64,000 nt of DNA from Rhizobiaceae bacterium (lineage in GTDB: Bacteria > Pseudomonadota > Alphaproteobacteria > Rhizobiales > Rhizobiaceae): NCBI GenBank assembly GCA_028279875.1, contig JANQMU010000061.1, positions 124,001-188,000 on the forward strand. The letters are read 5' to 3'. A program made the position numbers and the translations under genes. Shown here piece after piece: positions 2,583-25,092 of this stretch; the first letter of the stretch is position 1, and each line of letters opens with the position of its first letter. Under the pieces are notes generated by a model, which searched no databases, was not told the origin of the DNA, and saw nothing but the letters and a program-made list of their open reading frames with translations.

Positions 2583-2596
2583 ATTAGACATCTAAT
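2583..2596. promoter_or_regulatory. Palindromic operator (island regulon motif) before the ridA operon
   Basis: ATTAGA-CA-TCTAAT is a perfect inverted repeat. On the minus strand a TATAAT hexamer (plus-strand bases 2595-2600) overlaps its edge, so a protein bound here would cover the -10 region of the ridA - amidohydrolase - rraA unit. The same motif recurs at nine other places up to 24732. Binding by the MarR protein encoded at 4528-5103 is inferred. Confidence 0.7.
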
Positions 2597-2686
2597 TATA
2601 TAGTTGTATTGACCTTTTCCCTATTGAACCCCGATAGGAGGTTTCAACCTAGTGTTGGTAGGAACTGGAGCGCTTTATCCCCGCGC

Positions 2687-3664
2687 TCACAAATCGAGAA
2701 CCAAGCGTCCGTTCGCTGAACGGGAAACACAGATCATGATATGATCTTTCTTCTCACCTTCGCTCAGGACCAGATCTCGGTGATCGACGTCGCCGGAGAG
2801 AAGTTTTGTCATACAGGTGCCGCATGTGCCCGACTTGCAGGATGTCGCCGCGTGAACGCCACTGCGCTCAAGCGCCTGGATAATGGTCTCATCCCTCGCC
2901 ACCTCTATCACAGAACCGGAACTTGCAAGTTCAACTTCAAAGGCCTCATCACCTTCCAAAACCGCCTGGTCGTTAGATCCAAAATCCTCAAAATGCACAG
3001 TGCCTGGCGGCCAGTCTTCGGACAGGCCCTTGACTGCCTTCATAAGTCCCAGCGGGCCGCAGCAATAAAGATGCAGACCGTTGCTACGATTTTGAAGCAG
3101 CGGGACAAGGTCCAATGCGTTTTCCGGCCTTCCCTGATCATGGTGAATGTGAACATTGCCGGAAAACGGTCCGTTTCTTAGTTCATCCGCAAATGCAGTC
3201 GTTTCATCCGAGCGTGTCAGGTAAATCAATCGAAACGGCCTACCCTCATCTGTCAGCTGTCGCGCCATGGCCAAAATCGGCGTTATGCCGATTCCGCCGG
3301 CGATCAGCAGAAAAGATTGGGCGTCCTCGACAAGTTCAAAGTAGTTTCGCGGTGATGAGATTCGCAGGACCGTACCCACTTTGACATCATCATGCATACT
3401 GAGAGATCCGCCTCCGCCGTCGACTTCCCGTTTGATGGCGATCGAGTAGGTACCTGACCTGTCGGTCGAGTTGATCAAAGAGTAGTCACGTCGCTCCTTT
3501 CTAGGGGTTTCGATCGTAACGTGGGCTCCCGCGGAAAACTTTGGCAGACTGACCCCAAAATCCGGTGACAGCTCAAATCGCCGAATGTTTTCGGCGACAT
3601 CCTCAATTGACGTCACTTCGACCGATAAATTCAGTTGCGGGTTGTTCATGTTCGCGCTGTTCAT
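2687..3664 (-). CDS. PDR/VanB-type oxidoreductase (flavin plus C-terminal [2Fe-2S])
   Basis: The 325-residue protein is an electron-transfer reductase of the phthalate-dioxygenase/vanillate-demethylase reductase type. It has the flavin-binding R-D-Y-S (59-62), the NAD(P)-binding G-G-I-G-I-T-P (123-129) and C-G-P-L-G (202-206), and a C-terminal plant-type ferredoxin domain with Cys276, Cys281, Cys284 and Cys312 in C-x4-C-x2-C spacing. Such reductases normally feed a Rieske oxygenase, but none lies in this window. The operator at 3669-3680 almost touches the ATG and no Shine-Dalgarno is visible, so the mRNA may be leaderless; Met6 (3649) is an alternative start. Confidence 0.85.
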   Translation of the reverse strand: MNSANMNNPQLNLSVEVTSIEDVAENIRRFELSPDFGVSLPKFSAGAHVTIETPRKERRDYSLINSTDRSGTYSIAIKREVDGGGGSLSMHDDVKVGTVLRISSPRNYFELVEDAQSFLLIAGGIGITPILAMARQLTDEGRPFRLIYLTRSDETTAFADELRNGPFSGNVHIHHDQGRPENALDLVPLLQNRSNGLHLYCCGPLGLMKAVKGLSEDWPPGTVHFEDFGSNDQAVLEGDEAFEVELASSGSVIEVARDETIIQALERSGVHAATSCKSGTCGTCMTKLLSGDVDHRDLVLSEGEKKDHIMICVSRSANGRLVLDL

Positions 3665-3668
3665 TTTT

Positions 3669-3680
3669 TTAGATATCTAA
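3669..3680. promoter_or_regulatory. Perfect 12-bp palindromic operator before the PDR-type reductase
   Basis: TTAGATATCTAA is fully self-complementary and ends four bases upstream of the reductase start codon. A TAATAT hexamer on the minus strand (plus bases 3680-3685) abuts it as a likely -10 element. It is the best copy of the island motif. Confidence 0.7.
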
Positions 3681-3716
3681 TATTATTCGCGCAAAAGGGC
3701 AAGAGCTAAGTTAGGA

Positions 3717-4337
3717 CTAAGTGCGGGATCCCAGTTCAAATATCTGATACGTGGTTTTCCCGGCAGATATCGATTGAAGATATCCCTGTTCCTTCGCAAC
3801 CACCGCATCGGCTTTTTCCACTATCTCCTCCCCGAAGTCAGCCGGAACGACAACCACACCGTCGTCGCTCCCAACAACGATGTCTCCTGGATTTACCTTG
3901 GCGGCGCCGCACAAAATCTGGATATCAATTTCGCCGATCTCGGCCTTCCCTGTGGGTGTCGGATTTGCGCCCATGCAAAACACCGGAAACCGGAGGGCCC
4001 GCAGTTCGGCCATGTCGCGAACGGTGCTGCTGATCACAAGGCCAACAATACTCTTCTGCATACAGTTGGTTGCCAGAATGTCGCCGAAGGGCCCGAACCC
4101 GAGCGTGTTCCCCCCATCAACAACAAGGACGTCACCGGGCTCGGCAGTGTGAACCGCACGATGGATCCCGGCATTCTGTCCCGGCGTAATCCGAGCCGTC
4201 TTTGCGCGACCAACGACTTTTGTACCGGGCTCCAACGGACGGATCGACGCCCCGAAGGCGAGAACGCGCGTGTCCGCGTTGCACAAGCTTCCCAGCGAGT
4301 GCGCCCCGATCCTTTCGAGCAACTTTTCTTCCCGCAT
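3717..4337 (-). CDS. RraA-family protein (third paralogue, aldolase-like)
   Basis: The 206-residue RraA-fold protein has F-G-P-F-G-D-I-L-A (81-89) and S-T-V-R-D (104-108), the latter containing the Arg107-Asp108 catalytic pair. It differs clearly from the 225-residue paralogue at 390-1067, so the two are not a recent duplication. It stands alone between the reductase and the MarR gene, with its own imperfect operator at 4449. A pyruvate-releasing aldolase acting on a 4-hydroxy-2-oxo acid is likely; a non-catalytic role cannot be excluded. Confidence 0.8.
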   Translation of the reverse strand: MREEKLLERIGAHSLGSLCNADTRVLAFGASIRPLEPGTKVVGRAKTARITPGQNAGIHRAVHTAEPGDVLVVDGGNTLGFGPFGDILATNCMQKSIVGLVISSTVRDMAELRALRFPVFCMGANPTPTGKAEIGEIDIQILCGAAKVNPGDIVVGSDDGVVVVPADFGEEIVEKADAVVAKEQGYLQSISAGKTTYQIFELGSRT

Positions 4338-4448: not shown

Positions 4449-4460
4449 TTACATGTCTAA
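4449..4460. promoter_or_regulatory. Imperfect palindromic operator before the third rraA-like gene
   Basis: TTACATGTCTAA departs from perfect symmetry at one pair only and lies 112 bases upstream of the gene starting at 4337. It matches the island motif in both half-sites (TTA-A and TCTAA). Confidence 0.5.
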
Positions 4461-4527: not shown

Positions 4528-5103
4528 TCAGCGGGCTTTTTTGGAACGAGATTTGGCCGGCACACCCGCCTCCCCGGCCCTGTGACGGTTTTCGATCACC
4601 TTTGACACATCCCGCGTCGAAGGCACGCGACGTTCATCGTTCAGCAGTTCTACCTCGTCCTTCTGCAAATTCTTGACAATTGCAGAGAGAGTTCGCTGTG
4701 TCGCTTCTACGTCCTCGGCAGTTACACCTGAAAGAGCCTTCTTGCTCACATCTTCTGCCAGGGGCATCAAGACATCTTTGAGTTTTTTGCCCTCTTCTGT
4801 AAGGTAGATGTAGACTTGCTTTCGATCGCCCTCTTTCTTCATTCGGGTAATGTAGCCAAGCTTTTTCAGAGCGCGCAGGGCACTGTATGCGGTCGGCTCC
4901 ATCACACCCACATTTGCCGCAAGTTCCCGTTGAGTCTGGCCGTCTTTTTCCCAGAGTGCCCGCAAGAAAAGGCGATGACCGATGGAGACAGAATGTTCGA
5001 TCAATCGGATCTGCATGCTTCGCGAATAGGCCTTCACCGCCTCTTTCGCCAAGAATGAGATGCGCTTTTTGTCGTTCAATAGCAGATCGTGACTATTTGA
5101 CAC
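4528..5103 (-). CDS. MarR-family transcriptional regulator
   Basis: The 191-residue protein starts with GTG. A winged helix-turn-helix spans roughly residues 40-110: L-A-A-N-V-G-V-M-E-P-T-A-Y-S-A-L as recognition helix, then the wing with G-D-R-K-Q-V-Y-I-Y-L-T-E-E-G. The tail after about residue 150 is basic (R/K-rich) and longer than usual. MarR proteins bind short palindromes and release them on binding a phenolic or similar ligand. The gene's own start codon is overlapped by a degenerate copy of the island palindrome, which suggests autoregulation, and it lies among the units carrying that motif. It is the best candidate for the regulon's repressor. Confidence 0.85.
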   Translation of the reverse strand: MSNSHDLLLNDKKRISFLAKEAVKAYSRSMQIRLIEHSVSIGHRLFLRALWEKDGQTQRELAANVGVMEPTAYSALRALKKLGYITRMKKEGDRKQVYIYLTEEGKKLKDVLMPLAEDVSKKALSGVTAEDVEATQRTLSAIVKNLQKDEVELLNDERRVPSTRDVSKVIENRHRAGEAGVPAKSRSKKAR

Positions 5104-5116
5104 CTAGACACCTAAG
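5103..5116. promoter_or_regulatory. Degenerate operator overlapping the marR start
   Basis: CCTAGACACCTAAG keeps the TAG...CTA core of the island palindrome with two mismatched pairs. It overlaps the GTG start of the MarR gene, a position expected for autorepression. It is weaker than the other sites. Confidence 0.4.
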
Positions 5117-5572: not shown

Positions 5573-5584
5573 TTAGATTGCTAA
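5573..5584. promoter_or_regulatory. Palindromic operator before the first molybdopterin-subunit gene
   Basis: TTAGATTGCTAA, extended to CTTAG...CTAAG, has five-base arms and sits 165 bases upstream of the ATG at 5749. The identical 12-mer recurs at 8319 before the MFS operon, which supports a shared regulator. Confidence 0.65.
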
Positions 5585-5748: not shown

Positions 5749-8091
5749 ATGCGCGTTCCGAAGTTTTCCGTGGGCCAGCCGACCCGACGTATGGAAGACG
5801 TTGGTTTACTGACCGGCAATGGATGCTACGCAGACGACTTTCGACACCCCGACGAGGTCCACGCTGTGTTCGTCCGTTCCGCTGTCGCGCATGCAGACAT
5901 TGGGACGCCGGACATCTCGTCAGCGCTGGAAGTCCCTGGTGTTCTGAGTGTTCTGACCGGTCAGGACTGGAAGGATGAAGGGCTGGGCGAACTCAACGGG
6001 TCCGGGTTCTTTGGCATTCTCGATCCGAAAAGACGCGACGGTCAGGATTGGTTTCGTCCGATCAGGCTACCGCTGGCAGTCGGCCGCGTAAGGTATTTGG
6101 GCGAACCGATCGCGGTGGTAGTTGCCGAGACACAAAACGCAGCCAGAGATGCCGCCGAGCTTGTCGATATCCACTACAACCCGTTACCAATCGTCACGGA
6201 CACGGCGGAAGCGAACGCGCCGGGGAGCGTTCAAATCTATGACGAGTGCGAACGCAATGAGTCTTTTGTTTACGAGGTTGGAGACCAGGATGCGACCGAC
6301 CTGGCATTTTCTAGTGCGCCGCTCGTAGTCAAACAGAAATTTATCATCAATCGTATGTATGCCTCACCGATCGAACCAAGATCGGTCCTTGCACGATACA
6401 ACGCCGCCAACGGGAAATACGAGATCAAAGTCGGCGCGCAAAGCCCCAACGATCTACGTCGTTCCTTTGGGACAATGATGCTCAAGGTCGATCCGAACAA
6501 CATTCTCATCGAAACAGGGGATGTGGGCGGATCCTTCGGTATGAAGTCCAACAACTTCGCCGAAGCTCCGGTATTGGCTTGGGCTTCACGCAAGCTGGGC
6601 CGGCCGATCAAATGGTGTGCTACGCGCAGCGAGAGCTTTCTCGCGGACACACATGGACGCGACAACGTTACGGAAGGCGAACTCGCGCTGGACATAGATG
6701 GGCAATTTTTAGCATTTCGCGCACGGACGAATGTCGCTTTGGGTGCCTATATGAGCCCCGCAGGCGGCGTTCCGGCGACTTTGAACGTCGGAACAATGGC
6801 GGGTCCCTACACCACCCCGTCGGCACACGTTTCTGTCGCCGGCGTATTCACAAACACCAACCCTACATCCGCATACCGCGGATCGGGCCGCCCGGAGGCA
6901 GCGCTGGTGATCGAGCGCTTGATCGATATCGCGGCGGCAAAGCTGGAGGTCGACCCCGCTCAGTTGCGCCGCAGGAACATGATTCCTGTAGACGCCTTTC
7001 CCTACAAAACACCATTGGTCTTTACGTATGACTGCGGCGATTTCAAAACCGTGTTGAACAAGTGTCAGGAGGCGGCCGACTATGATGGCTTCAAGGCGCG
7101 AAGAACAGAAGCCGCAGGCCGAAACCGCTTACGCGGCATCGGGATCGCCTCGACGATCGAAATCGCCGCGCGCCCGGGCAGAGACACGGCCGTGTTGCAA
7201 GTCGGACCCGACGGAAAGGCGTGCGTTTTTGCAGGCTCGACCAACCACGGCCAGGGTCACGCGACTATCTATCGGCAGATCCTGAGTGACGAATTGGGTA
7301 TCCTCCCCGAAGACGTCACGATTTCGGAAGGCAACACTGCTTTTTCGCCGAGCGGCACCGGGAGCAACAGTTCACGCAGCTCCGCATTCGGATCAGCAAG
7401 CGTTCTTGACGCGACAAAAAAGGTGGCGGAATGCGGTCTGCCTGTCGCCGCTTACCTGCTTCAGTCCGACATCTCTGACGTCCAGTTTGAAAAGGGTTGC
7501 TACTCCACTGAACAGGGCGCAGGCACAGTGTCATTTTCCGATGTTGCAAAGGCTGTTGCTGATCCAAAACTTTCGGAACTCGTCGGCGGAGCTAAACTCG
7601 AAGGCACAGGTCACGCCGTACACGAGGCAGCGAACTTTCCGAATTGTTGCCATATCTGTGAGGTGGAGATTGATCCCGATACCGGCATAACCGAAATCGT
7701 CGGATATTGGGTGGTGGATGATGTGGGAACGGAATTGAATCCGGTGATCGTCAAGGGTCAGGTTCACGGTGGGGTGATGCAGGGTGTGGGTCAGGCCCTT
7801 TTGGAAAACATCGTGTTTGACGAGGACGGCCAGCTTCTCACCGGATCGTACATGGACTACGCGATGCCCCGCGCTTCGGACATCTGTGAAATCGTAGTCG
7901 ACAGCCATCCGGTTCCGACGGCCACGAACCCATACGGCGCCAAAGGCGTCGGCGAATCCGGAACCGTGGGCAGCCTGCCGGCCACGATGAATGCCATAGC
8001 CAACGCGCTTGGCCCGATTGGCATCACGCATGTCGACACACCGGCAACTCCAGACAAAATCTGGAGGCTTATTCGGGATGCGCAAAAATGA
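5749..8091 (+). CDS. Xanthine dehydrogenase family molybdopterin-binding (large) subunit
   Basis: The 780-residue protein is a CoxL/XdhB-type large subunit. The active-site loop A-Y-R-G-S-G-R (375-381) is of the form II type, not the A-Y-R-C-S-F-R of true CO dehydrogenase, and the catalytic glutamate is Glu736 in G-V-G-E-S-G. Family enzymes hydroxylate N-heterocycles, aldehydes or aromatics using a molybdenum cofactor. They normally need [2Fe-2S] and FAD subunits, which are absent from this window. The start at 5749 is chosen over an out-of-frame ATG four bases earlier. The substrate is unknown. Confidence 0.9.
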   Translation: MRVPKFSVGQPTRRMEDVGLLTGNGCYADDFRHPDEVHAVFVRSAVAHADIGTPDISSALEVPGVLSVLTGQDWKDEGLGELNGSGFFGILDPKRRDGQDWFRPIRLPLAVGRVRYLGEPIAVVVAETQNAARDAAELVDIHYNPLPIVTDTAEANAPGSVQIYDECERNESFVYEVGDQDATDLAFSSAPLVVKQKFIINRMYASPIEPRSVLARYNAANGKYEIKVGAQSPNDLRRSFGTMMLKVDPNNILIETGDVGGSFGMKSNNFAEAPVLAWASRKLGRPIKWCATRSESFLADTHGRDNVTEGELALDIDGQFLAFRARTNVALGAYMSPAGGVPATLNVGTMAGPYTTPSAHVSVAGVFTNTNPTSAYRGSGRPEAALVIERLIDIAAAKLEVDPAQLRRRNMIPVDAFPYKTPLVFTYDCGDFKTVLNKCQEAADYDGFKARRTEAAGRNRLRGIGIASTIEIAARPGRDTAVLQVGPDGKACVFAGSTNHGQGHATIYRQILSDELGILPEDVTISEGNTAFSPSGTGSNSSRSSAFGSASVLDATKKVAECGLPVAAYLLQSDISDVQFEKGCYSTEQGAGTVSFSDVAKAVADPKLSELVGGAKLEGTGHAVHEAANFPNCCHICEVEIDPDTGITEIVGYWVVDDVGTELNPVIVKGQVHGGVMQGVGQALLENIVFDEDGQLLTGSYMDYAMPRASDICEIVVDSHPVPTATNPYGAKGVGESGTVGSLPATMNAIANALGPIGITHVDTPATPDKIWRLIRDAQK

Positions 8092-8318: not shown

Positions 8319-8330
8319 TTAGATTGCTAA
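8319..8330. promoter_or_regulatory. Palindromic operator before the MFS - hydratase - cyclase - GMC operon
   Basis: TTAGATTGCTAA is identical to the copy at 5573. It lies about 130 bases upstream of the MFS start and is the only copy seen before this four-gene operon. Confidence 0.65.
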
Positions 8331-8458: not shown

Positions 8459-10078
8459 GTGAGAATGACACAAGGATCATCGCCGCTGGCTGTCTTGTCA
8501 CACGGGTCTTTTCGCACAATCTGGCTAGCGACCATGGTGTCAATGCTGGGGCACTGGATACAGACCGTGGCAGCGGCGTGGACGATGTCCTCAATCACCG
8601 ATTCGGCGATCCTGGTCGCCCTCGTGCAAAGCACGATACATCTCCCGTTGATGATCTTCTCCTATTCCGCAGGCATTATCGCAGATACCTGGGATCGCCG
8701 CCGTGTCATGCTCTTTGCCCAGGTTCTGGCTTGCAGCTCCGCCGCCGTTCTGGCGGCGATCACCTGGTTGGATGTTATCTCTCCCGTGACGCTCCTTATC
8801 CCGTGCTTTCTTATAGGTACGAGCATGGCGCTGCATCATCCGGCATGGAACGCCTCGATCGCAGATATTCTGGGATCAGGTGAACGCCTTCCGGCAGCCA
8901 TCAGCTTGAACTCCATGGGCACAAACAGCATGCGCAGCATCGGGCCGGCGATCGGCGGAGCCGTCGTTACATTTGCGGGTGCTGCTGTCGCATTCGCAAT
9001 GAACGCAGTGAGCTACATCTTCCTGATCGCCGCGCTCTATTGGTGGAAACCGCCGAAGAAGGTCGCAGAGCTTCCTTCCGAGGAATTCCGGATCGCGGCC
9101 ACCAACGGCCTGCGCTACCTGCTGATGTCGCCGAACCTTCTACGCATAATATCCTACGGCTCTGCCTTCGGCTTGTCCGCCGTCTGCACGATGGCACTGC
9201 TTCCGTTGATAGTCCGAAACGATTTGCAACAACCGGCCTCGGTCTTTGGAATCATGCTGGCATGTTTTGGCCTGGGCGCCGTCATCGCGGCGTTTCTACT
9301 TCCGTGGATCAGGAACCGTTACCCAATCAGGCACATCATTCGGGTCGGGCTGTGTGCGAGCGGCCTTGCGCAGTTGGCAATCGTCGCGGTCGGCCGCACC
9401 GACATCACCGGCCTGTCACTGGTTGTCTCAGGTGCATCGTGGTCGATTTTGCTCAACTTGCTGAACATCACGGTCCAGACTCGGACACCGCGCTGGGTGA
9501 TCGGGCGCGCTCTTTCACTCCACATGACATTCACGGTCGGAGGCATGGCCATCGGCTCGTTGTTGTGGGGGTACATATCGCAAATCAGTTCTAACGATAT
9601 TGCCATGTCCTGCGCGGCGGCACTGGCAATATTGAGCGGGATTGTTGGCGTCGGCATCAATGACACGAATGCAGGTGGTGAAAGACTCGAGCCATTGAAT
9701 CGGTTCGTGCCTCCACAGGTCGACCAGGACATCAAGCCGATGAGCGGCCCCATCGTTGTTCACATCGATTATAGAATCGAAAACTCTGATACCTCCAAGT
9801 TTCTAAAGATCATGACGCAGAGGCGGCGTATGCATCTGCGGGACGGTTCTTACAACTGGGCACTATTGCGCGATCTCGAAACCGCAAACTGGTGGACCGA
9901 GCGCTATTACATGCCGACCTGGACGGAGTATCTCCGACACCATGGGCGTCGTTCAAAGAAAGACGGTGAAATGCACGATATGCTGGAAAAGATAAGTAAA
10001 ACAAAGCCGAAGGTGCGTCGGATGATCGAGCGTCAAACGGTCCCGACAAAAATCAGTTCCGCGGACTTCTTTCAATGA
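8459..10078 (+). CDS. MFS exporter of the MFS_3 (PF05977-like) type with C-terminal extension
   Basis: The 539-residue protein has about twelve hydrophobic segments between residues 15 and 410. G-x-x-A-D-x-W-D-R-R-R (after TM2) is the typical MFS loop. The last ~115 residues are soluble and resemble the antibiotic-monooxygenase-like tail found in this exporter family. It starts with GTG at 8459, with ATG at 8465 as a close alternative. It heads an operon with hydratase, cyclase and GMC oxidoreductase genes (gaps of 22-70 bases). Export of a toxic intermediate or substrate analogue is a reasonable inference. Confidence 0.8.
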   Translation: MRMTQGSSPLAVLSHGSFRTIWLATMVSMLGHWIQTVAAAWTMSSITDSAILVALVQSTIHLPLMIFSYSAGIIADTWDRRRVMLFAQVLACSSAAVLAAITWLDVISPVTLLIPCFLIGTSMALHHPAWNASIADILGSGERLPAAISLNSMGTNSMRSIGPAIGGAVVTFAGAAVAFAMNAVSYIFLIAALYWWKPPKKVAELPSEEFRIAATNGLRYLLMSPNLLRIISYGSAFGLSAVCTMALLPLIVRNDLQQPASVFGIMLACFGLGAVIAAFLLPWIRNRYPIRHIIRVGLCASGLAQLAIVAVGRTDITGLSLVVSGASWSILLNLLNITVQTRTPRWVIGRALSLHMTFTVGGMAIGSLLWGYISQISSNDIAMSCAAALAILSGIVGVGINDTNAGGERLEPLNRFVPPQVDQDIKPMSGPIVVHIDYRIENSDTSKFLKIMTQRRRMHLRDGSYNWALLRDLETANWWTERYYMPTWTEYLRHHGRRSKKDGEMHDMLEKISKTKPKVRRMIERQTVPTKISSADFFQ

Positions 10079-16666: not shown

Positions 16667-17821
16667 ATGACGCTGTTGGAGTTGGTTCAATCTAAGGCTA
16701 TTGCAGCGGCGCTTGCCACGTCGATCGTAGCTTCACCCGCCGTTGCGGCCGAAATGAGTTTTGCCGTTGGATTCCCGGATAAACAAACAAATACTCAAGC
16801 CGCTTATGTCATGGCCGAGTATGTTGCAGATAACACGGATATTGACGTTAAAGTCTATCCGATTTCGCTTCTCAGCCTCGCGGAGACATCCGCGGGCCTT
16901 CGCGATGGTCTGGCAGATATCGGGTTCGTTGTTACCGGCTACACGCCCTCGGACTACGCGGAAATGGGATTGGCGACCAACCTTGCATTGTCCGCAAACA
17001 GCACAGGCAAACAAACCGAATATCCGGGCGCGGCTATGGGTCTGGCGGTCACAGAATATGTGATGCTTCACTGTCCCGAGTGTCAGGCCGAAATGAAGAA
17101 GATGAACCAGGTTTATCTGGGTGGCGGCAGCTCAGCCTCTTACAGCATCATCTGTGCCAATACCGAAATTGACTCGGCCGCCGACCTGAAGGGTCTCAAA
17201 ATCCGAACAGCCGGCCCCGAATACGCGCGCTGGGTTGAAAGTTTCGGCGCGGTCAACGTGAAAATCCCGCTGGGCGAGGTTTATGAGGGTTTCTCACAAG
17301 GGGTTATGGATTGCATGTTGAATCCACCCAACTCGGTAGAAGGCTCTCAGCTTTATGATGTCATTAAGCAGGTCTACCTTGGCGCTCCAAAGGGCACCTA
17401 CGCCGCCATGACGACCGGCAACGTAAACTTGGATGCGTGGAAAGAACTGTCGGTGGAAGAGAAAACGGCTTTCCTGCGTGGTGCTGCCGAAGCCTCCGCG
17501 TTCACCTCCTGGAATTATCTGAACGAAGGCGAAGTCGCCCTCAAAAAGATGGAGGAATTGGACATCACGGTTAAGCCGGTACCGGACGATATCGTCCAGA
17601 CATCAGCCGACTTCGCGAAGAGTGATATTGCCACTGTCGCAGAACTCATGAAGTCACAATACAATATCGATGATGTCGAGAAGAAAATGAACACGGTTGT
17701 CGAACTGGTCGAAAAGTACAAGGTGCTTACAGAAGGCAAAGAGCGCGATCGAGCGGCTCTGGCCCAGCTGTATTGGGATCACATCATGTCGAAGGTCGAC
17801 CCGGCGACATACGGAAGCTGA
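16667..17821 (+). CDS. TRAP transporter substrate-binding protein (DctP type)
   Basis: The 384-residue periplasmic protein has a Sec signal peptide ending near A-V-A-A-E (about residue 28). A strong Shine-Dalgarno (GGAGG) precedes the ATG. The central R-T-A-G-P-E segment carries the arginine that TRAP receptors use to bind a carboxylate of the ligand, and G-L-K-I-R-T is typical of the family. It heads the unit dctP - dctQ - dctM - adh. The ligand is probably an organic acid; its identity is unknown. Confidence 0.9.
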   Translation: MTLLELVQSKAIAAALATSIVASPAVAAEMSFAVGFPDKQTNTQAAYVMAEYVADNTDIDVKVYPISLLSLAETSAGLRDGLADIGFVVTGYTPSDYAEMGLATNLALSANSTGKQTEYPGAAMGLAVTEYVMLHCPECQAEMKKMNQVYLGGGSSASYSIICANTEIDSAADLKGLKIRTAGPEYARWVESFGAVNVKIPLGEVYEGFSQGVMDCMLNPPNSVEGSQLYDVIKQVYLGAPKGTYAAMTTGNVNLDAWKELSVEEKTAFLRGAAEASAFTSWNYLNEGEVALKKMEELDITVKPVPDDIVQTSADFAKSDIATVAELMKSQYNIDDVEKKMNTVVELVEKYKVLTEGKERDRAALAQLYWDHIMSKVDPATYGS

Positions 17822-17934
17822 TAGACGGATGTTCTGGTGGGTCTGATGCTTGTCAGGCTCGCCAGTACATAACTTCTTCCGCAGCCGAGATCCGGGTATC
17901 AGCTGCCAGTTTCTTGTAGGGACTACGTATAGGT

Positions 17935-18450
17935 GTGACCGGCCGCATATTCGACAAGTTGATAGATGCTGCGACTGCTATCGGTGCGCTTGCGACAGCG
18001 CTCATGATGATCCACGTGTCGCTTGATGTGACATTGAAATACCTGTTCAACGCTCCGATTCCCGCCACGATCGTCATCGTTTCGCAATACTACATGCTTT
18101 GCGTTGCATTCCTTCCCCTGGCGCTTGCCGAGCAACAGAATTCGCACATCAGCGTCGAGATTTTTGCCACACACCTACCGGAGCGTATTCAGAACTATCT
18201 GCAAGGCGCCTCGTTCCTGTTCGCCTGCATCGTCTACGGGATGCTGACGTATATAGCGGCTTTCAACGCGCGCAGGGAGTTTGAGGCCGGTAGCTTCTTG
18301 ATCGAGCAGCAAGTCAAGATCGATGTATGGCCAGCCTATTTCATTCTTCCGACCGGGACCGGATTGATGACCCTTTATCTTGCACTGCGCTTCTTCCGGT
18401 TTCTGCGCGGTGACGATCAACTGAAATCTCACGAAGTTCCATTCGAATAG
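17935..18450 (+). CDS. TRAP transporter small permease (DctQ type)
   Basis: The 171-residue membrane protein has four predicted hydrophobic helices and starts with GTG. Positions about 25-40 carry the family pattern H-V-S-L-D-V-T-L-K-Y near the first helix. The gene follows dctP by 113 bases and precedes dctM by 8 bases, as usual. It links the binding protein and the large membrane subunit. Confidence 0.85.
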   Translation: MTGRIFDKLIDAATAIGALATALMMIHVSLDVTLKYLFNAPIPATIVIVSQYYMLCVAFLPLALAEQQNSHISVEIFATHLPERIQNYLQGASFLFACIVYGMLTYIAAFNARREFEAGSFLIEQQVKIDVWPAYFILPTGTGLMTLYLALRFFRFLRGDDQLKSHEVPFE

Positions 18451-18458
18451 GGCGCCCC

Positions 18459-19766
18459 ATGTCTAACATCGAAATTGGCTTCACGGGATTGGGTTTGCTG
18501 TTCACACTAATTCTGCTCCGCTTCCCAATCGGCATTTCCATGATCGGCGTTTCTTTCGCGGGAATTTGGGTGTTGGTTGGCGAACGCGCGGCTTGGGCTG
18601 CGCTTGGGCTGATACCGCAGTCATTCGCCGCAAAATGGGCGTTGAGTTCCGTCCCCATGTTCCTGCTGATGGGCTTCGTCTGCTATCACACGGGTCTCAC
18701 CAAGTCTCTGTTCGACGTCGCCCGATTGTGGTTGTCGCGTCTCCCAGGGGGCCTTGCGGTTGCATCCGTTTTTGGTTCCGCGGGGTTTGCTGCGGTCACC
18801 GGATCAAGTGTGGCCTGCTCTGCAACGATGGGTAAAATTGCCGTGCCGGAAATGACCCGATGTGGCTATTCTCCGAAACTCGCGACAGGAACGGTCGCCG
18901 CCGCAGGAACGATTGGCGCGCTTATCCCGCCATCGATATTGATGATCCTTTACGGGATCATCGCCCAGGTTCCGATAGGCAAGCTGTTTCTTGGCGGGCT
19001 TGCTGTCGGCTTGTTGACCACTTTCGCCTACTGCGCCGTGATTATTCTTCAAGCGACATTGAATCCGAAGATCGCGCCTCGAATCGAGGGCGGCATTCCG
19101 ATGAAGGAGAAGTTGGACGCCCTGTTGACGACCTGGCCGCTTATCCTTCTTGTCATCGGCGTTTTCGGGGGTCTGTTTTCAGGGTTGTTTACACCGACCG
19201 AAGCCGGAGCTGTTGGCGCTGCGCTGGCCATCATTATCGCGATGGTCAAGCGTTCGCTGACTTGGCAAAACTTCTGGTTATCGATCCGGGAAACCTTGCT
19301 TACGACAGCGACGCTTTTCATCATCGCCATCGGTGCCAGCCTGTTAACCCGTTTTCTTGCATTGAGCGGATCCGGGGATTTTCTGGCAGATACGATTATT
19401 GGTTTCGGTGCGGACCCGCTCGTCCTGCTCATTGGAATAACCGTGGTTTACCTCCTGATGGGCATGATTCTTGATCCCCTCGGTGCGATGCTTTTGACGC
19501 TGCCGGTTCTTCTTCCAATCCTGGAAGCCGGCCAGTTCAGCCTGATCTGGTTTGGTGTTTTGCTGACGAAATACCTGGAGATCGGCATGATCACGCCTCC
19601 AATCGGACTGAATGTCTTCGTCATTAAGGGTGTTGTGGGCAATCTCGCGTCGCTGGAAACAATATTCAAGGGCGTCATCCACTTTCTCATAGCCGACATC
19701 TTCATTGTTGCCGCGATGATCGCTTTCCCAGAGTTCGTTCTCTATCTGCCGAACCTGGTGGAATAA
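18459..19766 (+). CDS. TRAP transporter large permease (DctM type)
   Basis: The 435-residue protein has many hydrophobic segments, with the family landmarks S-V-P-M-F-L-L-M-G-F (66-75), a G-S-S-V-A-C-S-A-T-M-G loop and I-P-P-S-I-L-M-I-L-Y-G. It is the sodium-coupled channel subunit. It is tightly coupled to dctQ and followed 147 bases later by an alcohol dehydrogenase in the same direction. Confidence 0.9.
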   Translation: MSNIEIGFTGLGLLFTLILLRFPIGISMIGVSFAGIWVLVGERAAWAALGLIPQSFAAKWALSSVPMFLLMGFVCYHTGLTKSLFDVARLWLSRLPGGLAVASVFGSAGFAAVTGSSVACSATMGKIAVPEMTRCGYSPKLATGTVAAAGTIGALIPPSILMILYGIIAQVPIGKLFLGGLAVGLLTTFAYCAVIILQATLNPKIAPRIEGGIPMKEKLDALLTTWPLILLVIGVFGGLFSGLFTPTEAGAVGAALAIIIAMVKRSLTWQNFWLSIRETLLTTATLFIIAIGASLLTRFLALSGSGDFLADTIIGFGADPLVLLIGITVVYLLMGMILDPLGAMLLTLPVLLPILEAGQFSLIWFGVLLTKYLEIGMITPPIGLNVFVIKGVVGNLASLETIFKGVIHFLIADIFIVAAMIAFPEFVLYLPNLVE

Positions 19767-19912
19767 CGCTTCGATGCTAATCCCGGCAAAAGAGTTTCAA
19801 GAAGCCGCCAAACGACCACCTCCAGCAAGCGAGGCTTGTCCGCCGATGATTTTCGCATCGGAGAAGCGCTTTTGATGGCTGGGAGCATGCTGGATCATTT
19901 GGGAGAAGAAAA

Positions 19913-20977
19913 ATGAAAATATGGGCCATGGTGGCGCCGAGGACTCCGCTGAAGTTGATTGAAGTCGAGGACCCTAATCCCAAGGGAACCGAGGTCATCG
20001 TCAGAACGACACATTGCGGGCTGTGCCATTCCGATGTTCACCTTTGGGAAGGCGGATACAATCTCGGCGGCGGCAAGGTGATGAGTATTCTCGACCGCGG
20101 TGTGAACCTTCCACTGGCGCCCAGTCACGAGATTGCCGGCGTCGTCGACGCAGTCGGACCGAATGCCGACGGCGTTCACGTAGGGGACAAGCGCATTGTC
20201 TTTCCCTGGATCGGATGCGGAAAATGCGACCGCTGCAAGGCAGGTGAAGAGAACCTTTGTGCCACCATGAGTCCCATCGGCCTGCTGCGCCATGGCGGCA
20301 TGGCGCAGAAGGTGGTGGTACCGCATCCGCGTTACCTGGTCGACCCCGGCAACCTGGAGCTCGGGCTTGGCGCCACCTATGCCTGTTCCGGTATCACCGC
20401 GAATGGTGCCATTCGCAAACTGGAGATCGACAGCCCGGAAAAACCCGTGGTGTTGATGGGTGCTGGCGGACTTGGTTTGTCGGCTGTGGCGTTGCTGAAG
20501 GCCAAGGATCATCGCAATACGATTGTTGTCGATTTGAACTCTGCCAAGCGCGAGGCCGCAATGGAGGCCGGCGCTACAGCCTTTGTTGATGGCACGGCTT
20601 CTGATCTGGGTGCCAAGATCAAAGATGCCGCAGGTGGACCGGTGCCTTATGCAATCGACTTTGTCGGCAACGATAAAACGGCACGGGTGTTGTTCGACAA
20701 CCTTGCCAAGGGTGGGCGTGTGGTGATTGTAGGTGTGGCCGGCGGTGAGTTGAACCTGTCACTGGCCGGCCTGATTTTTGTGCCTCGAGCGATCATGGGC
20801 TCTGTGGTGGGAACCATCCAGGACCTTCGAGAAGTGGTTGCACTTGCCAATTCCGGCAAACTGAAACCTCTCCCGATTGAGCGAATGCCGATTGACCAGG
20901 CAAACCAGGCGTTGCAGAAATTGATCGACGGAAAGACAACCGGACGCATCGTGCTGGAGCACAACAATACAGATTGA
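19913..20977 (+). CDS. Zinc-dependent alcohol dehydrogenase (MDR superfamily)
   Basis: The 354-residue protein has catalytic zinc ligands Cys35 (H-C-G-L-C-H-S), His72-Glu73 and Cys158, structural zinc cysteines 102, 105, 108 and 116, and the NAD(P)-binding G-A-G-G-L-G (183-188). All are intact, so an active NAD(P)-dependent alcohol dehydrogenase is expected. A good purine-rich Shine-Dalgarno precedes the ATG. It follows the TRAP genes and probably oxidises an alcohol derived from the imported compound. Confidence 0.9.
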   Translation: MKIWAMVAPRTPLKLIEVEDPNPKGTEVIVRTTHCGLCHSDVHLWEGGYNLGGGKVMSILDRGVNLPLAPSHEIAGVVDAVGPNADGVHVGDKRIVFPWIGCGKCDRCKAGEENLCATMSPIGLLRHGGMAQKVVVPHPRYLVDPGNLELGLGATYACSGITANGAIRKLEIDSPEKPVVLMGAGGLGLSAVALLKAKDHRNTIVVDLNSAKREAAMEAGATAFVDGTASDLGAKIKDAAGGPVPYAIDFVGNDKTARVLFDNLAKGGRVVIVGVAGGELNLSLAGLIFVPRAIMGSVVGTIQDLREVVALANSGKLKPLPIERMPIDQANQALQKLIDGKTTGRIVLEHNNTD

Positions 20978-21177: not shown

Positions 21178-21188
21178 TCTAGATCCGA

Positions 21189-22313
21189 TCAGTCGATGCC
21201 GTAGGTTTTGACGTCGACCTTGTCAAAGATGTTTTCCTTGAGAACCGCCAGAAGCGCGTCCTCGTCCTTGCGGTCCACGCCGGCCAAGAGGCCCTCCCAT
21301 TTTTCCACGTACACTGCGAACGAGGAAAAGAGCGAGTCTGGGTCGGCGATACCGAATTTCTCTTTGGCGATCTCGGCACCGCCCCCAAATCCACCGTCGA
21401 CCCAAGCTCGAACCGCGTCCTTGAAGGCCGCATCCGCCTCGACCACAGCCTTGCCGTTGTCCTTGGCCCACTGCAGAGCATCTTCAACCTCTTTGGCATA
21501 GGCCATTTGCAGACGCACCATACTTAACGCACCCACGTCCAGCAAATGGCGGCGGTTCTCATCCGAAATACCCTGCCAGAAGTCGCGATCATACATCAGG
21601 CCCGCGGAAGAGAAGTACGGCATGAAATTCGCCAGAAAAACGGAATCGATCAGATCGCCGATTTTTTGTCCGGAGACCAGGAAGGTCAGGTCTGCGGCAA
21701 CGCAATCCAGAGCCCCACGCTCGAGCCCCGTATAGGATTCGCTGGATGATATATTCACCGGGCTCAATCCGATATCGGTCATTACGCGTGCGTAAGACGC
21801 TCCCGGCGAGCGGGTCTTGGCACCCTGAAGATCTTCCAGGGAGGTCCGGCCGCCAGTGCACATCAGATGATAGACCGGCGTCGCGTGACCGGCTCCGTAT
21901 AGAACGCCGTTGTTTTTCCAGTCCTGTTTTGCGGCTTCATCGTTGAAATTGAAATCGGCATAGGCGAAAGCCAGGACAAAACTGTCAGGCTTCAACCAAC
22001 CCAAGTCACTGACCGCGTTAAGCACGGGCAATGCCGAAGGCGCATAGGTCGGAGGCATGACCGAGACCTGTGCCACACCGTTGGATATGCCTTCGAGTGT
22101 CCCAGTGGGGGGCAACAGCGCACCGCCTGCAAAGACTTCGAAGTCGATCTCTCCACCCGTCGCGTCGCGCACATTGTCCGCGAACTCCTGGTGCTGGTAG
22201 CGTGTTATGATGTGCGTTGGACCGATAAAGGTCGCAATCGAATACTGCTCGGCCTTGGCCGGGGTTGCGATGGCCAAGAACACAGCTGCCATCAGGGTCT
22301 TTCTGAAACGCAT
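21189..22313 (-). CDS. TRAP transporter substrate-binding protein (second system)
   Basis: The 374-residue exported protein has a signal peptide cleaved near A-K-A-E (residue 21). A very strong Shine-Dalgarno (AAGGAGGAAA) precedes the ATG. It is only distantly similar to the DctP at 16667, so the ligands may differ. It is the last gene of the minus-strand unit dctQ - dctM - dctP, where the receptor comes third rather than first. Confidence 0.88.
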   Translation of the reverse strand: MRFRKTLMAAVFLAIATPAKAEQYSIATFIGPTHIITRYQHQEFADNVRDATGGEIDFEVFAGGALLPPTGTLEGISNGVAQVSVMPPTYAPSALPVLNAVSDLGWLKPDSFVLAFAYADFNFNDEAAKQDWKNNGVLYGAGHATPVYHLMCTGGRTSLEDLQGAKTRSPGASYARVMTDIGLSPVNISSSESYTGLERGALDCVAADLTFLVSGQKIGDLIDSVFLANFMPYFSSAGLMYDRDFWQGISDENRRHLLDVGALSMVRLQMAYAKEVEDALQWAKDNGKAVVEADAAFKDAVRAWVDGGFGGGAEIAKEKFGIADPDSLFSSFAVYVEKWEGLLAGVDRKDEDALLAVLKENIFDKVDVKTYGID

Positions 22314-22349
22314 GATTTCCTCCTTTTTTCCAGCGTTTTAGATCAGCAC

Positions 22350-23657
22350 TTACTTCATCTGACTCGGCAGCCAGAGCGCGATTTCCGGCCAGATGATCAT
22401 TGCAACGAGAACCAGCACATCCATTGCCAGGAACATCAGCGCACCTTTGAAGATGGTCGGCAGGGACGCTGCGCCGCGCAGAAGCGAATGAATGACGAAA
22501 CAGTTGAGCCCAAAGGGCGGCGAGATCAGACCAATTTCCAGCAGCTTCACCACCAGGATGCCAAACCAGATCATGTTGATGTCGGCCGCATCGAGTAGCG
22601 GAATCAAGATCGGCAGCGTCAGCAGCATGATCCCTAGCGAGTCGATGAACATGCCCAGCGTGATGTACATCAGGGCGATCACCAGGATCAGTGTCAGCGG
22701 ATCGGTCCCGAGCGCCTTGATATTGTCGGAGATTGCGGCGGGAAGACCGGCGAGCCCCATGAATGTCGTGAACATGCTTGCGCCCATGGCGATCACAAAC
22801 AGGCTGGACGTCCCGAGCGCTGTTTCCTTCAATGCGCTGAGCATCTGCTTCAGCGTCAGCGTTCGCCGCGTCAGCGCGATGATGCAGGCCAACGCAGCAC
22901 CCACGGCGCCTGCCTCTGTAGGCGTCATGATACCTGCGTAGATGCCGCCGATGACGCCGATCACCAACACGGGCAGTGGCCAGGATTCGCGAACCGCATC
23001 CCAGAATTCACCCTCTGCGAGTTCTATTCTGGTACTGGGAGCCATCGACGGATTGATCTTCACGACAACCATGATCATCGCGATGTAAGCGACTGCTGTC
23101 AGCAATCCGGGAATGAAACCCGCGATGAACAACTGGCCGATGGGCGCTTGGGTAAATACGCCATAAATGACGAGGATGACCGAGGGTGGGATCAGCGACC
23201 CGAGTGTGCCGGATGCGGCAACGCAACCGGCGGACAGGCTATAGGCATATCCGGCCTTGCGCATTTCGGGAATTGCGATCCTGCCCATCCCCGCCGCCGT
23301 CGCGACAGATGATCCCGAAGCCGCAGCGAACAGCGCACAGGCGCCAACGGAGGAACAGGCAAGTCCACCGGGCACACGGTAGAGAAGCACCCGCATCATG
23401 CGGAACAGGCCCGTTGTGAGCCCTGTTTGACTTGCGACGAAGCCCATCAGCAGAAACATGGGCACAGCGCTGAACGACCAGTTGGCAATAAACTGATACG
23501 GAACCGCTTTGAGCATTCCAAAGGCGGCATTGATGTTGGTCAGAGCCCAAAGGCCGACAAAGGACGTCGTGGCGAGCGCAATGCCAATCGGTGTTCGGAG
23601 CAGAACGAGCAGAAAGGTCACTGCGATGCCGATCAGTCCAATATCGAACCTATCCAT
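22350..23657 (-). CDS. TRAP transporter large permease (second system)
   Basis: The 435-residue DctM protein starts with Met-Asp-Arg-Phe-Asp-Ile-Gly. An upstream in-frame extension to 23807 overlaps dctQ and lacks membrane-protein character, so it is rejected. It has S-A-V-P-M-F-L-L-M-G-F, the G-S-S-V-A-T-A-A-G-M-G loop and I-P-P-S-V-I-L-V-I-Y-G, as in the first system. Its first bases overlap the dctQ stop by 8, indicating coupling. Confidence 0.9.
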   Translation of the reverse strand: MDRFDIGLIGIAVTFLLVLLRTPIGIALATTSFVGLWALTNINAAFGMLKAVPYQFIANWSFSAVPMFLLMGFVASQTGLTTGLFRMMRVLLYRVPGGLACSSVGACALFAAASGSSVATAAGMGRIAIPEMRKAGYAYSLSAGCVAASGTLGSLIPPSVILVIYGVFTQAPIGQLFIAGFIPGLLTAVAYIAMIMVVVKINPSMAPSTRIELAEGEFWDAVRESWPLPVLVIGVIGGIYAGIMTPTEAGAVGAALACIIALTRRTLTLKQMLSALKETALGTSSLFVIAMGASMFTTFMGLAGLPAAISDNIKALGTDPLTLILVIALMYITLGMFIDSLGIMLLTLPILIPLLDAADINMIWFGILVVKLLEIGLISPPFGLNCFVIHSLLRGAASLPTIFKGALMFLAMDVLVLVAMIIWPEIALWLPSQMK

Positions 23658-24183
23658 GGAACTCTTCCTGTTCCACGTCGTGTACGCCCACGAGCTTCGC
23701 GCGAACCTCCTTGTTTGTGAAAAACTGATAGAGATAGACGACGCAGATGACGCCTGCCAAGAAGAAACTGACAGGCAGGACAAACCGGCTCGGCCAGACA
23801 GTGACAAAGTATTGTCCCATCATCTGTTCATTGATCCGGAATGAGCGCAGGGCATCTCCCCAACTGGTGTAAGCCAGCACGAAATAGACGGTGGCCGACA
23901 GCGTGAGCACCATCGTCATGCAGGAAACCTTCATGAAATGGGGCATGAACTGATAGGCCGCGTCGACAGCGATCGAAGCGCGCGCAAGCTCCACCGCTGC
24001 AAGCGGCAGAAACACCCCGGCAACCATGTAGTAGGCGGAGACGATTTCCAGAGTGCCCGGAATGGGGCTGTTCATCGCGTATCTCAGGGCAACGTCGGCG
24101 GCGACGTGAACCATCATGGCAAACAGGAACAGCCCTGAAAGAAGCAACGTCAGGTTGGACAGATGCGTCAGAATTCGCTTCAC
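23650..24183 (-). CDS. TRAP transporter small permease (second system)
   Basis: The 177-residue protein has four hydrophobic helices. The GTG at 24183 is chosen because GGTGGAG precedes it at correct spacing; the frame is open to 24315 but that extension is hydrophilic and unlike DctQ proteins. H-V-A-A-D-V-A-L-R-Y is the family pattern after the first helix. It is the first gene of the operon; the palindrome at 24414 lies in its promoter region. Confidence 0.85.
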   Translation of the reverse strand: MKRILTHLSNLTLLLSGLFLFAMMVHVAADVALRYAMNSPIPGTLEIVSAYYMVAGVFLPLAAVELARASIAVDAAYQFMPHFMKVSCMTMVLTLSATVYFVLAYTSWGDALRSFRINEQMMGQYFVTVWPSRFVLPVSFFLAGVICVVYLYQFFTNKEVRAKLVGVHDVEQEEFHG

Positions 24184-24413
24184 GCTGTTTTCTCCACCTG
24201 TGTCACCTGCTTTCGGTTGCCTAAAGTGCTCTTCAGCATTTCTTTGATTTTCTCGATCGATCCCTGCATCGGTGGCTACGGCGGGCTTGCGCGAAAAGAG
24301 CTTGCCGATCCGCAACCGTACGCAGACCGCCCGGCACAGATCGAGTTCGGCTTGCGAGTACGCTGAAACTCAACCCTCGCTTGATTGAGATCGGCCGAGA
24401 ATCAACTCCTCCC

Positions 24414-24425
24414 AAAGATATCTAA
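24414..24425. promoter_or_regulatory. Palindromic operator before the second TRAP operon
   Basis: AAAGATATCTAA has a perfect AGATATCT core and one intact outer half-site. It lies about 230 bases upstream of the dctQ start. It matches the island motif. Confidence 0.5.
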
Positions 24426-25092
24426 TTACAAAGCGCGAGCGCGAACATCGGCGTTTGTCGCCTCGTAATATGCAAAGCTACAAGATCCATCTTGATTGTA
24501 ATTGTCATGCATTCGGCAATCATTGATTTGAAGGGCTAGATCTGGGTTGAATTAGAGTCAAGCTTATGTTTTTGTTACACTAATTTTGTCCTGCTTTAAC
24601 GAGACTGGTGCTGAATCTGGCAAGCCGAAGCTGCGGCGAAGCGAGCCTGTTAAAGTGCACCCTACCCTACATCAGTAACACTCCCTCCCATTTCTTATTC
24701 TGTAACTAGGTATCATATACTTAGATGTCTATGCAACATAAATTGCGAATGCCCCGAGGCAGCAGAATGCGAAGCCAGGTCCCTGGAAAGAATGCCGGCA
24801 GATGGAACTTTTGTGCAGGCCGAGTTCGCCGCCGAACGAACACATCTCGTCCCCATCGTGCCGGAACAGGCTTCAGCAAGCTGACTTCGAATTCTGGAGT
24901 AAGGGTGTCGCGATGTTGTCGATCGACTAGCCGTAGCTGCCCGGCACAGATCGATGCGAAATAAGACCTTCAACCAAATAATGAGCCGATACTGAGCCCG
25001 GTCATGTTTCGGAAACAAATACGTTGCGCACCTGTCCACCTTCGGCTGAAATTACCCCATTGCCGAACTGGAACAATTGGGTGAAGGTTGCG
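24426..25092. other. Long intergenic region at the island end, no gene assigned
   Basis: About 660 bases lie between the TRAP promoter and the DUF4268 gene. Short frames on both strands (for example around 24725-25039) show no family features. One island palindrome lies at 24721. The stretch may contain decayed genes. Confidence 0.4.
24721..24732. promoter_or_regulatory. Solitary copy of the island palindrome
   Basis: TTAGATGTCTAT (TAGA-TG-TCTA core) is a good match to the island motif but has no adjacent start codon: the nearest genes begin about 360 bases to the right and 540 to the left. It may serve a decayed or unannotated transcript, or act as a distal site. Confidence 0.45.

What the first reader, a model, noticed from the sequence alone, without database searches (positions are those of the whole stretch)
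2583..24732. Ten copies of a TTAGATNTCTAA palindrome define a putative MarR regulon across a 22-kb catabolic island
Sites at 2583, 3669, 4449, 5103, 5573, 8319, 16136, 16519, 24414 and 24721 share arms TTAGA/TCTAA. Nine lie directly upstream of a transcription unit, and every complete unit between 390 and 24183 has one; I noticed no comparable copy to the right of the tRNA. Two copies are perfect palindromes and two distant copies (5573, 8319) are identical. In the ridA and reductase promoters a -10-like hexamer overlaps or abuts the site, which suits a repressor. The only DNA-binding regulator in the island is the MarR protein at 4528, whose own start overlaps a degenerate site. The set links TRAP uptake, two molybdoenzymes, a reductase, aldolases and an exporter into one inferred pathway.
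Basis: partly seen in the sequence, partly recalled or inferred. Interest (0 to 1): 0.8.

Follow-up and report, generated by a model that had tools for sequence, protein, structure and literature searches.

The report
MarR operator set controlling aromatic island
About a dozen copies of one short DNA palindrome mark nearly every promoter of a gene island for breaking down an aromatic acid, and the same palindrome sits beside the same kind of regulator and oxygenase gene in many other bacteria, so it is very probably the regulator's binding site.

Summary
The palindromes are real: all ten cited sites exist (two starts off by one). Genome-wide, 20 places match TTAGANNTCTAA within one mismatch; 10 lie in 27 kb of this island (two left of the window), 10 in the other 6.86 Mb. 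Local counting alone would not exclude chance after the fact; comparison does. A matrix built only from other genomes' phthalate-type Rieske promoters ranks island sites 1-13 over 84 kb. Of 80 related Rieske loci, 52 carry exact TTAG-N4-CTAA within 200 bp upstream (0.44% of random stretches). Sampling by MarR instead, 17 of 17 stretches with MarR plus Rieske carry it, 3 of 26 without Rieske. In 25 of 52 Rieske promoters a -10 box directly precedes the palindrome (shuffles about 1), as for a repressor. MarRs with a changed recognition helix (ENT/ETT for EPT) go with a changed operator. Closest precedents: DdvR-ligXa, phtR genes, SlyA-type operators.

The parts
2584..2595 (.). operator TTAGACATCTAA before ridA-amidohydrolase-rraA
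   Evidence: 0 mismatches; one search score 25.7; -10 TATAAT starts 5 bp before the site, reading to ridA
3669..3680 (.). operator TTAGATATCTAA before the reductase
   Evidence: 0 mismatches; one search score 28.2
4449..4460 (.). operator TTACATGTCTAA before rraA2
   Evidence: 1 mismatch; one search score 16.3; CATACT starts 5 bp before the site
5104..5115 (.). weak operator CTAGACACCTAA at the marR start codon (autoregulation?)
   Evidence: 2 mismatches; one search score 11.9
5573..5584 (.). operator TTAGATTGCTAA before Mo-hydroxylase large subunit 1
   Evidence: one search score 28.7, the best of 84 kb
8319..8330 (.). operator TTAGATTGCTAA before the MFS-hydratase-cyclase-GMC operon
   Evidence: one search score 21.9
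16136..16147 (.). operator ATAGATATCTAA before Mo-hydroxylase large subunit 2
   Evidence: one search score 23.4
16194..16205 (.). weak secondary site TTAGATATATGA, 58 bp from 16136
   Evidence: 2 mismatches; one search score 6.3
16519..16530 (.). operator ATAGATGTCTAA before TRAP1-ADH
   Evidence: one search score 22.4
16542..16553 (.). secondary site TTAGAAACATAA, 23 bp from 16519
   Evidence: 2 mismatches; one search score 11.5
24414..24425 (.). weak, doubtful site AAAGATATCTAA before TRAP2
   Evidence: 2 mismatches; score -0.16 (background)
24721..24732 (.). orphan operator TTAGATGTCTAT; a -10-like TATACT starts 5 bp before it on the + strand
   Evidence: one search score 20.3
4528..5103 (-). 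MarR-family regulator, 191 aa, recognition-helix region GVMEPTAYSAL
   Evidence: Pfam MarR 36.8 bits, cut-off 24.6; only match at E<=1e-20 in its genome
390..1067 (-). RraA-like aldolase 1
   Evidence: Pfam PF03737
1101..2096 (-). amidohydrolase 2, nearest solved LigY and 4-oxalomesaconate hydratase
2093..2488 (-). RidA-family deaminase
2687..3664 (-). ferredoxin-type oxygenase reductase, with relatives in 51 of 83 compared loci
3717..4337 (-). RraA-like aldolase 2
5749..8091 (+). molybdenum hydroxylase large subunit 1
8459..10078 (+). MFS exporter (MFS_3)
10131..10922 (+). FAA-hydrolase/hydratase-like (below the Pfam cut-off, weak matches)
10993..12039 (+). cyclase-family hydrolase
12062..13690 (+). 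GMC oxidoreductase
13735..16062 (-). molybdenum hydroxylase large subunit 2
16667..20977 (+). TRAP transporter 1 (DctP, DctQ, DctM) and zinc alcohol dehydrogenase
21189..24315 (-). TRAP transporter 2 (DctP, DctM, DctQ)

Best explanation
The palindromes (core CTTAG-N4-CTAAG in an AT-rich 24-bp frame) are operators of the MarR-family protein encoded at 4528-5103. A MarR dimer, one winged helix per half-site, sits just downstream of or over the -10 box and the transcription start and blocks RNA polymerase. An aromatic acid (the pathway's substrate or an early product) entering by the TRAP importers would bind MarR and release it, switching on about 10 to 12 promoters together: Rieske oxygenase, Gfo/Idh dehydrogenase, CoxG, reductase, RidA/amidohydrolase/aldolases, two molybdenum hydroxylases, exporter operon, TRAP importers, and weakly marR itself. 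Shown by computation: sites, their island-specific density, conservation with MarR and the Rieske module, promoter geometry in related loci, change of operator with recognition helix. Inferred: binding, repression, ligand, pathway. The genes resemble a protocatechuate-4,5-cleavage-like route for a carboxylated (hetero)aromatic; the substrate is unknown.
For: Own genome: 10 of 20 sites (at most 1 mismatch) in 27 kb of 6.89 Mb; 4 of 7 exact TTAGNNNNCTAA; of the 10 off-island sites only C60:56750 scores above 15, beside a partial transposase and a DUF4062 gene. Matrix from 64 sites of other genomes: the 13 best places over 84 kb are island sites, the next on the list 4.65. Rieske-first: 52 of 80 loci have exact TTAG-N4-CTAA within 200 bp upstream; random 200-bp stretches 0.44%; next-best arm at that gap 7 of 80. 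MarR of 150 bits or more: site in 43 of 48 loci against 19 of 32 others, p = 0.002. MarR-first: 17 of 17 stretches with a Rieske relative (one only 30% identical), 3 of 26 without. Seven stretches (five loci) chosen for LigB or Mo-hydroxylase relatives and lacking this MarR: none has a hit above 5. A -10 hexamer starts 3-20 bp before the site in 25 of 52 Rieske promoters; flank shuffles mean 0.98, maximum 3. Helix and operator: TNVxE(N/T)T-helix MarRs go with TACTTC-N6-GAAGTA-like operators in 4 loci of the discovery set and in 4 of 4 further loci with a Rieske of 52-53% identity, two of them near-identical; one contig holds an EPT MarR with a TTAG site and an ENT MarR with a TACTTC-like site (L235/L236). 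The MarR is the only match at E<=1e-20 in its genome. DdvR, a MarR protein, represses ligXa in Sphingobium SYK-6 (PMC6874591, passages).
Against: No binding or expression data. The raw local count is not significant after the fact. Of the four homologues nearest in identity (about 50%), two (G308, G354) have Rieske and sites, but two (G095, beside nitrile hydratase; G172) have neither a Rieske nor an exact site in the 20-40 kb read, so MarR identity alone does not predict the site. 12 of 19 loci without a detected MarR still have the site (many are short contigs, but L094, L098 and L124 are full length). L116 has an EPT helix yet a variant operator; L059 has neither operator; L237 has an ETT helix, only a distant Rieske (28%) and no variant site; L231 has an ENT and an EPT MarR on a 5.4-kb contig with TTAG sites only. 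In the window the -10 fit is clear (9 of 12) at only 2 promoters. 24414 scores at background. One off-island place (C60:56750) scores 22.8, as high as good island sites; C139:15819 was not scored. Loci are related and partly the same contigs, so counts are not independent events.
Confidence: 0.9

Rival explanations
1. The sites are operators, but of another regulator of the genome; the nearby MarR is incidental or controls only itself.
For: Two of the four closest MarR homologues occur without the exact motif; three full-length loci with the motif (L094, L098, L124) show no MarR within 10 kb.
Against: No other regulator was matched among the island genes searched (the LysR at L016:7249-8163 lies outside). 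MarR and motif keep company in 43 of 48 and 17 of 17 loci, and the operator changes with the MarR recognition helix.
Confidence: 0.06
2. MarR binds the sites but works mainly as an activator or as a SlyA-like countersilencer, not as a steric repressor (not exclusive: it could do either at different promoters).
For: SlyA reads a very similar palindrome (TTAGCAAGCTAA, TTAN6TAA) and can activate by antagonising H-NS (PMC5797941, start of abstract and passages). In the window most sites lack a clear -10 just upstream.
Against: In related Rieske promoters the site lies just downstream of the -10 box in 25 of 52, an unusual place for an activator; DdvR represses ligXa.
Confidence: 0.12
3. A chance or compositional set: AT-rich intergenic stretches of a lower-GC island yield palindromes that the eye groups together.
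For: In local shuffles some palindrome class reaches 7 to 13 hits; the island is 51-57% GC, below much of the rest of the window.
Against: A matrix from other genomes recovers the sites, and the same motif stands before the same gene in 52 of 80 loci.
Confidence: 0.01

Closest known systems
DdvR-ligXa/ddvT regulation, Sphingobium sp. SYK-6 (PMC6874591, passages)
   Same: MarR-type repressor of a Rieske-type gene ligXa in an aromatic catabolic cluster with transporter genes; derepressed when the substrate enters. The window's Rieske matches Pfam LigXa_C.
   Different: DdvR sequence and operator were not compared here; several sphingomonad loci seen here have another recognition helix and operator. 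The window's Rieske is nearest to phthalate-dioxygenase-like solved proteins and its regulon is wider.
phtR / MarR of phthalate (pht) clusters: Sphingobium yanoikuyae SHJ (PMC6051330), Thalassospira (PMC9604089); passages
   Same: MarR gene with phthalate 4,5-dioxygenase and dihydrodiol dehydrogenase (in Thalassospira also reductase and TRAP importer): the kind of module that shares the operator here.
   Different: The passages read name the MarR gene only and give no operator. No Pht5-like decarboxylase was matched in the window island, which adds molybdenum hydroxylases, LigB, RidA and aldolases.
SlyA operator TTAGCAAGCTAA (PMC5797941, passages)
   Same: Same outer arms TTAG...CTAA and spacing; MarR family.
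   Different: The window MarR scores 36.4 bits on the SlyA model (cut-off 120); local catabolic regulon rather than a global one.
MarR_73/IadR and IacR of auxin catabolism (PMC9613470, passages)
   Same: MarR repressor of an aromatic-acid catabolic locus, released by the substrate.
   Different: Operator sequence not seen in the passages; different oxygenase type (alpha-beta IadD/E, PMC10374108 passages).

Membership tests
MarR-family transcription factor | MarR winged-helix domain above the curated cut-off | tested here: met
   PF01047 36.8 bits against 24.6; phmmer matches to solved MarR proteins such as 2fbh
MarR-family transcription factor | short palindromic operator in target promoters | tested here: met
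   (sequence evidence; binding not tested)
MarR-family transcription factor | DNA binding relieved by a ligand | not testable with these tools
   needs a gel shift with candidate ligands
SlyA subfamily | NCBIfam SlyA equivalog cut-off | tested here: not met
   36.4 bits, cut-off 120
SlyA subfamily | operator of form TTAN6TAA | tested here: met
   sites such as TTAGATATCTAA fit the form; works like it, not filed as a member
MarR regulator of phthalate-type Rieske modules (phtR kind) | MarR near PDO/LigXa-type Rieske, Gfo/Idh dehydrogenase and reductase | tested here: met
   all four present within about 9 kb
MarR regulator of phthalate-type Rieske modules (phtR kind) | TTAG-N4-CTAA-like operator before the Rieske gene | tested here: met
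   one-mismatch site TTAGATATCTAT 35 bp before the called Rieske start
MarR regulator of phthalate-type Rieske modules (phtR kind) | sequence kinship with DdvR or the named phtR proteins | not tested
   their sequences were not fetched
Phthalate (pht) catabolic cluster | 4,5-dihydroxyphthalate decarboxylase (Pht5, NMT1-like) present | tested here: not met
   no NMT1-family match among the island genes searched with Pfam (not every small ORF was searched); an NMT1 match is present in related locus L041. So the island is not filed as a phthalate cluster

The most novel reading that the evidence does not exclude
A MarR subfamily reaching across Alpha-, Beta- and Gammaproteobacteria carries its own operator code. 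Proteins with an MEPT-type recognition helix read CTTAG-N4-CTAAG; proteins with a TNVxE(N/T)T helix read TACTTC-N6-GAAGTA; and at least one genome runs both side by side, presumably without cross-talk. In the window one such repressor has been spread over about a dozen promoters of an uncharacterised aromatic (perhaps N-heteroaromatic) acid pathway, the largest set among the 81 loci compared.
Probability: 0.6. Interest if true: 0.6.

Novelty: new member of a known kind. Interest (0 to 1): 0.5.

Why it matters
It gives a sequence-level operator for a widespread group of MarR regulators beside phthalate-type Rieske oxygenases, for which the open-licence papers searched gave none, so regulon members and unknown pathway genes can be predicted in many genomes. 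The matched change of recognition helix and operator makes a MarR specificity switch directly testable, and the promoters are candidates for aromatic-acid biosensors. In the window it ties two molybdenum hydroxylases, a LigB dioxygenase's neighbours, RidA, aldolases and two TRAP importers into one switchable pathway of unknown substrate.

Tried and rejected
Raw palindrome counting in the island as proof: rejected, shuffles give comparable best classes. Orthologous whole islands: a LigB search of 297 genomes of the order gave 3 distant hits (38-43%) besides itself, and the five stretches read around them do not share the island; tblastn of Mo-large 1 against plasmids gave 1028 records, all under 60% identity, and the two regions read are not this island. 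Phthalate itself as substrate: not supported, no Pht5-like gene matched in the island. Literature: the motif string was found in one paper only, on a cyanobacterial flavodiiron deletion (listing only); searches gave no operator for a MarR of phthalate-type Rieske clusters in what I saw (listings, and passages of seven papers); subscription papers are mostly not held. Structure prediction was not used.
Full report
OBSERVATION. A scan for TTAGANNTCTAA with up to two mismatches finds all ten cited sites, two of them one base to the right of the stated start. In 64 kb there are 17 matches where shuffles give 6.7 on average and 14 at most. In the whole genome of the window (6,886,902 bases, 164 contigs) 20 places match with at most one mismatch; 10 lie on C128 between 121713 and 148732, that is from 2.3 kb left of the window to 24732, and 10 in all the rest. 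Exact TTAGNNNNCTAA occurs 7 times in the genome, 4 times in the island. A blind ranking of 7168 palindrome classes over 32.3 kb puts TTAGA-N2 second with 10 hits, but local shuffles reach 7 to 13 for their best class; so local counting alone could be an after-the-fact pick, and I rest the case on the tests below.

SURROUNDINGS. The island starts left of the window: ferredoxin reductase, FAD and FeS subunits of a molybdenum hydroxylase, LigB dioxygenase, a LigXa_C-type Rieske oxygenase, CoxG and a Gfo/Idh/MocA dehydrogenase. Sites stand 35 bp before the called Rieske start and 66 bp before CoxG; the latter lies inside the longest dehydrogenase ORF but before its Pfam domain, so probably between the two divergent genes. 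In the window follow RraA, amidohydrolase, RidA, reductase, RraA, MarR, two Mo-hydroxylase large subunits, MFS exporter, hydratase-like protein, cyclase, GMC oxidoreductase, two TRAP transporters and an alcohol dehydrogenase. Nearest solved relatives: Rieske, 7fjl and a putative phthalate 4,5-dioxygenase 7fhr; LigB, protocatechuate 4,5-dioxygenase; amidohydrolase, LigY and 4-oxalomesaconate hydratase. No other DNA-binding family was matched among the island genes searched; a LysR gene lies outside at L016:7249-8163.

INDEPENDENT MATRIX. In 52 of 80 an exact TTAG-N4-CTAA lies within 200 bp upstream of the Rieske match (7 more have one mismatch); random 200-bp stretches of the same loci give 0.44% (1600 draws); the next arm at that gap scores 7 of 80. 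A 24-bp matrix from the 64 exact sites found there, none from this genome, gives C before and G after the 12-mer in 70% and AT-rich flanks. Over the 84 kb of own sequence its 13 best places are island sites (28.7 down to 6.3); the next is 4.65. It supports 2584, 3669, 4449, 5573, 8319, 16136, 16519, 24721 and both left-hand sites strongly (16 or more), 5104 and 16542 moderately, 16194 weakly, and not 24414 (-0.16; the matrix is harsh on arm mismatches because only exact arms went in). Of the ten off-island sites nine score below 15, one 22.8.

LINK TO THE MarR PROTEIN. In the 80 loci a site within 2.5 kb upstream of the Rieske gene or at the MarR promoter occurs in 43 of 48 with a MarR of 150 bits or more and 19 of 32 others (p = 0.002); for the narrow 200-bp measure it is 35 of 48 against 17 of 32 (p = 0.09). 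Sampling from the MarR side: from the matches I read stretches of up to 20 kb for all but 11 listed matches (lower-scoring ones); 44 stretches, 43 with a MarR. 17 of 17 that also hold a Rieske relative have exact sites, 3 of 26 without one do. Seven stretches from five loci chosen for LigB or Mo-hydroxylase relatives, none with a MarR of this group above 30 bits, have no hit above 5. Against: of the four homologues of about 50% identity two (G308, G354) have Rieske and sites, but two (G095, G172) have no Rieske and no exact site in the stretches read; G172 has one place scoring 14.3 beside a Mo-hydroxylase-type gene.

CHANGE OF OPERATOR WITH CHANGE OF HELIX. Six of the 80 loci have a weak MarR match (under 150 bits) and no TTAG site. 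Five of them, L075, L115, L116, L121 and L123, carry another palindrome in the same place, TACTTC-N6-GAAGTA with at most one mismatch, 28 to 106 bp before the Rieske match; L059 has none. In all 80 loci ACTTC-N6-GAAGT with at most one mismatch occurs 47 times, 7 times within 200 bp before the Rieske match: these five and L067 and L071, which are hybrids with one CTTAG half. In four of the five the recognition-helix region reads TNVxE(N/T)T instead of the usual MEPT; L116 keeps EPT. The motif was picked from these loci, so the next set is the test. A search of 347 genomes of the family of L121's genome led to four more loci with such a MarR and a Rieske of 52-53% identity: L232, L233 (near-identical to L232), L234 and L235/L236. 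All four hold the variant palindrome (one, one, one and two mismatches): 79 bp before the Rieske frame in L232 and L233, at the very start of the stop-to-stop Rieske frame in L234, and at the dehydrogenase end 0.9 kb before the Rieske frame in L235. L232 and L233 also have a TTAG-N4-CTAA 0.9 kb beyond the Rieske gene; L237 (Rieske 28%) has no variant site; L231 (5.4 kb, ENT and EPT MarRs, no Rieske) has TTAG sites only. L235/L236 is a natural control: one contig with an EPT MarR, reductase and Rieske around TTAGGTTCCTAA, and about 13 kb on a second Rieske and an ENT MarR with TAGTTCTATATAGAAGCA. That the helix in question is the DNA-reading one is family knowledge (recalled), consistent with the alignment to 2fbh.

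MECHANISM. In 26 of 52 Rieske promoters with a site a sigma-70-like pair scores at least 9 of 12; in 25 of the 26 the -10 hexamer starts 3 to 20 bp before the palindrome (flank shuffles: mean 0.98, maximum 3 in 50 runs; opposite strand 2 of 10). In the island the same arrangement is clear for ridA (TATAAT at -5) and rraA2 (CATACT at -5) and weaker elsewhere. A protein bound there would cover the start of transcription, as a repressor does. Ligand release is inferred from the family: DdvR represses ligXa until its substrate enters (PMC6874591, passages), and MarR_73 releases DNA on binding auxin (PMC9613470, passages).

EXTENT. With a threshold of 10 the island holds 12 sites in 34 kb (7.1 per 20 kb); the other 80 loci hold 0 to 5, though 30 of them are shorter than 18 kb and none exceeds about 21 kb. 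So the window shows an unusually wide regulon of this kind.

NOVELTY. MarR repressors of aromatic catabolism, MarR genes in pht clusters and TTAG...CTAA operators of SlyA are all known; this is a new member, with an operator not found in the papers searched (open-licence papers only, seen as listings and passages). The operator-helix correspondence is the part most worth testing.

Noticed in passing
window 24721-24732 and 25024-26073: A strong orphan operator with a -10-like TATACT just before it on the + strand faces a DUF4268 gene about 290 bp away; no island gene follows, so it may be a leftover of a lost target.
   Followed up: partly
L016:13771-15085 with window 5749-8091 and 13735-16062: Two molybdenum hydroxylase large subunits, but only one FAD and one FeS subunit was matched among the island genes searched (left of the window); they may share it.
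   Followed up: no
window 1-26222: The island is 51-57% GC against mostly 57-67% further right, and a tRNA-Arg (26146-26222) stands at its right edge, as in acquired islands. Of seven genus relatives searched, two (G002, G004) have a MarR match at E<=1e-20, of 37%, beside a smaller Rieske module.
   Followed up: partly
L017 665-1336 (window -335 to 336): A third RraA-like gene seems to straddle the left edge of the window: it shares BLAST matches with the two other RraA genes; not checked with Pfam.
   Followed up: no
L235 3290-6195 and 16154-19801, L236 3-419: One contig holds two MarR-Rieske modules with different recognition helices and different operators.
   Followed up: partly
L238 (G1331:C23), around 218599-219074: An ENT-family MarR match is split into two pieces, while an exact TACTTC-N6-GAAGTA palindrome lies about 9 kb away.
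   Followed up: no
L038 13371-16134: A 47-50% homologue of the window MarR stands next to nitrile hydratase genes without the exact motif: the regulator may have been recruited to another function.
   Followed up: no
window 16136/16194 and L040 10231/10289: Paired sites 58 bp apart in two genomes; also pairs 23 bp apart (window 16519/16542, L163 3027/3050). Possible cooperative spacing or chance.
   Followed up: no
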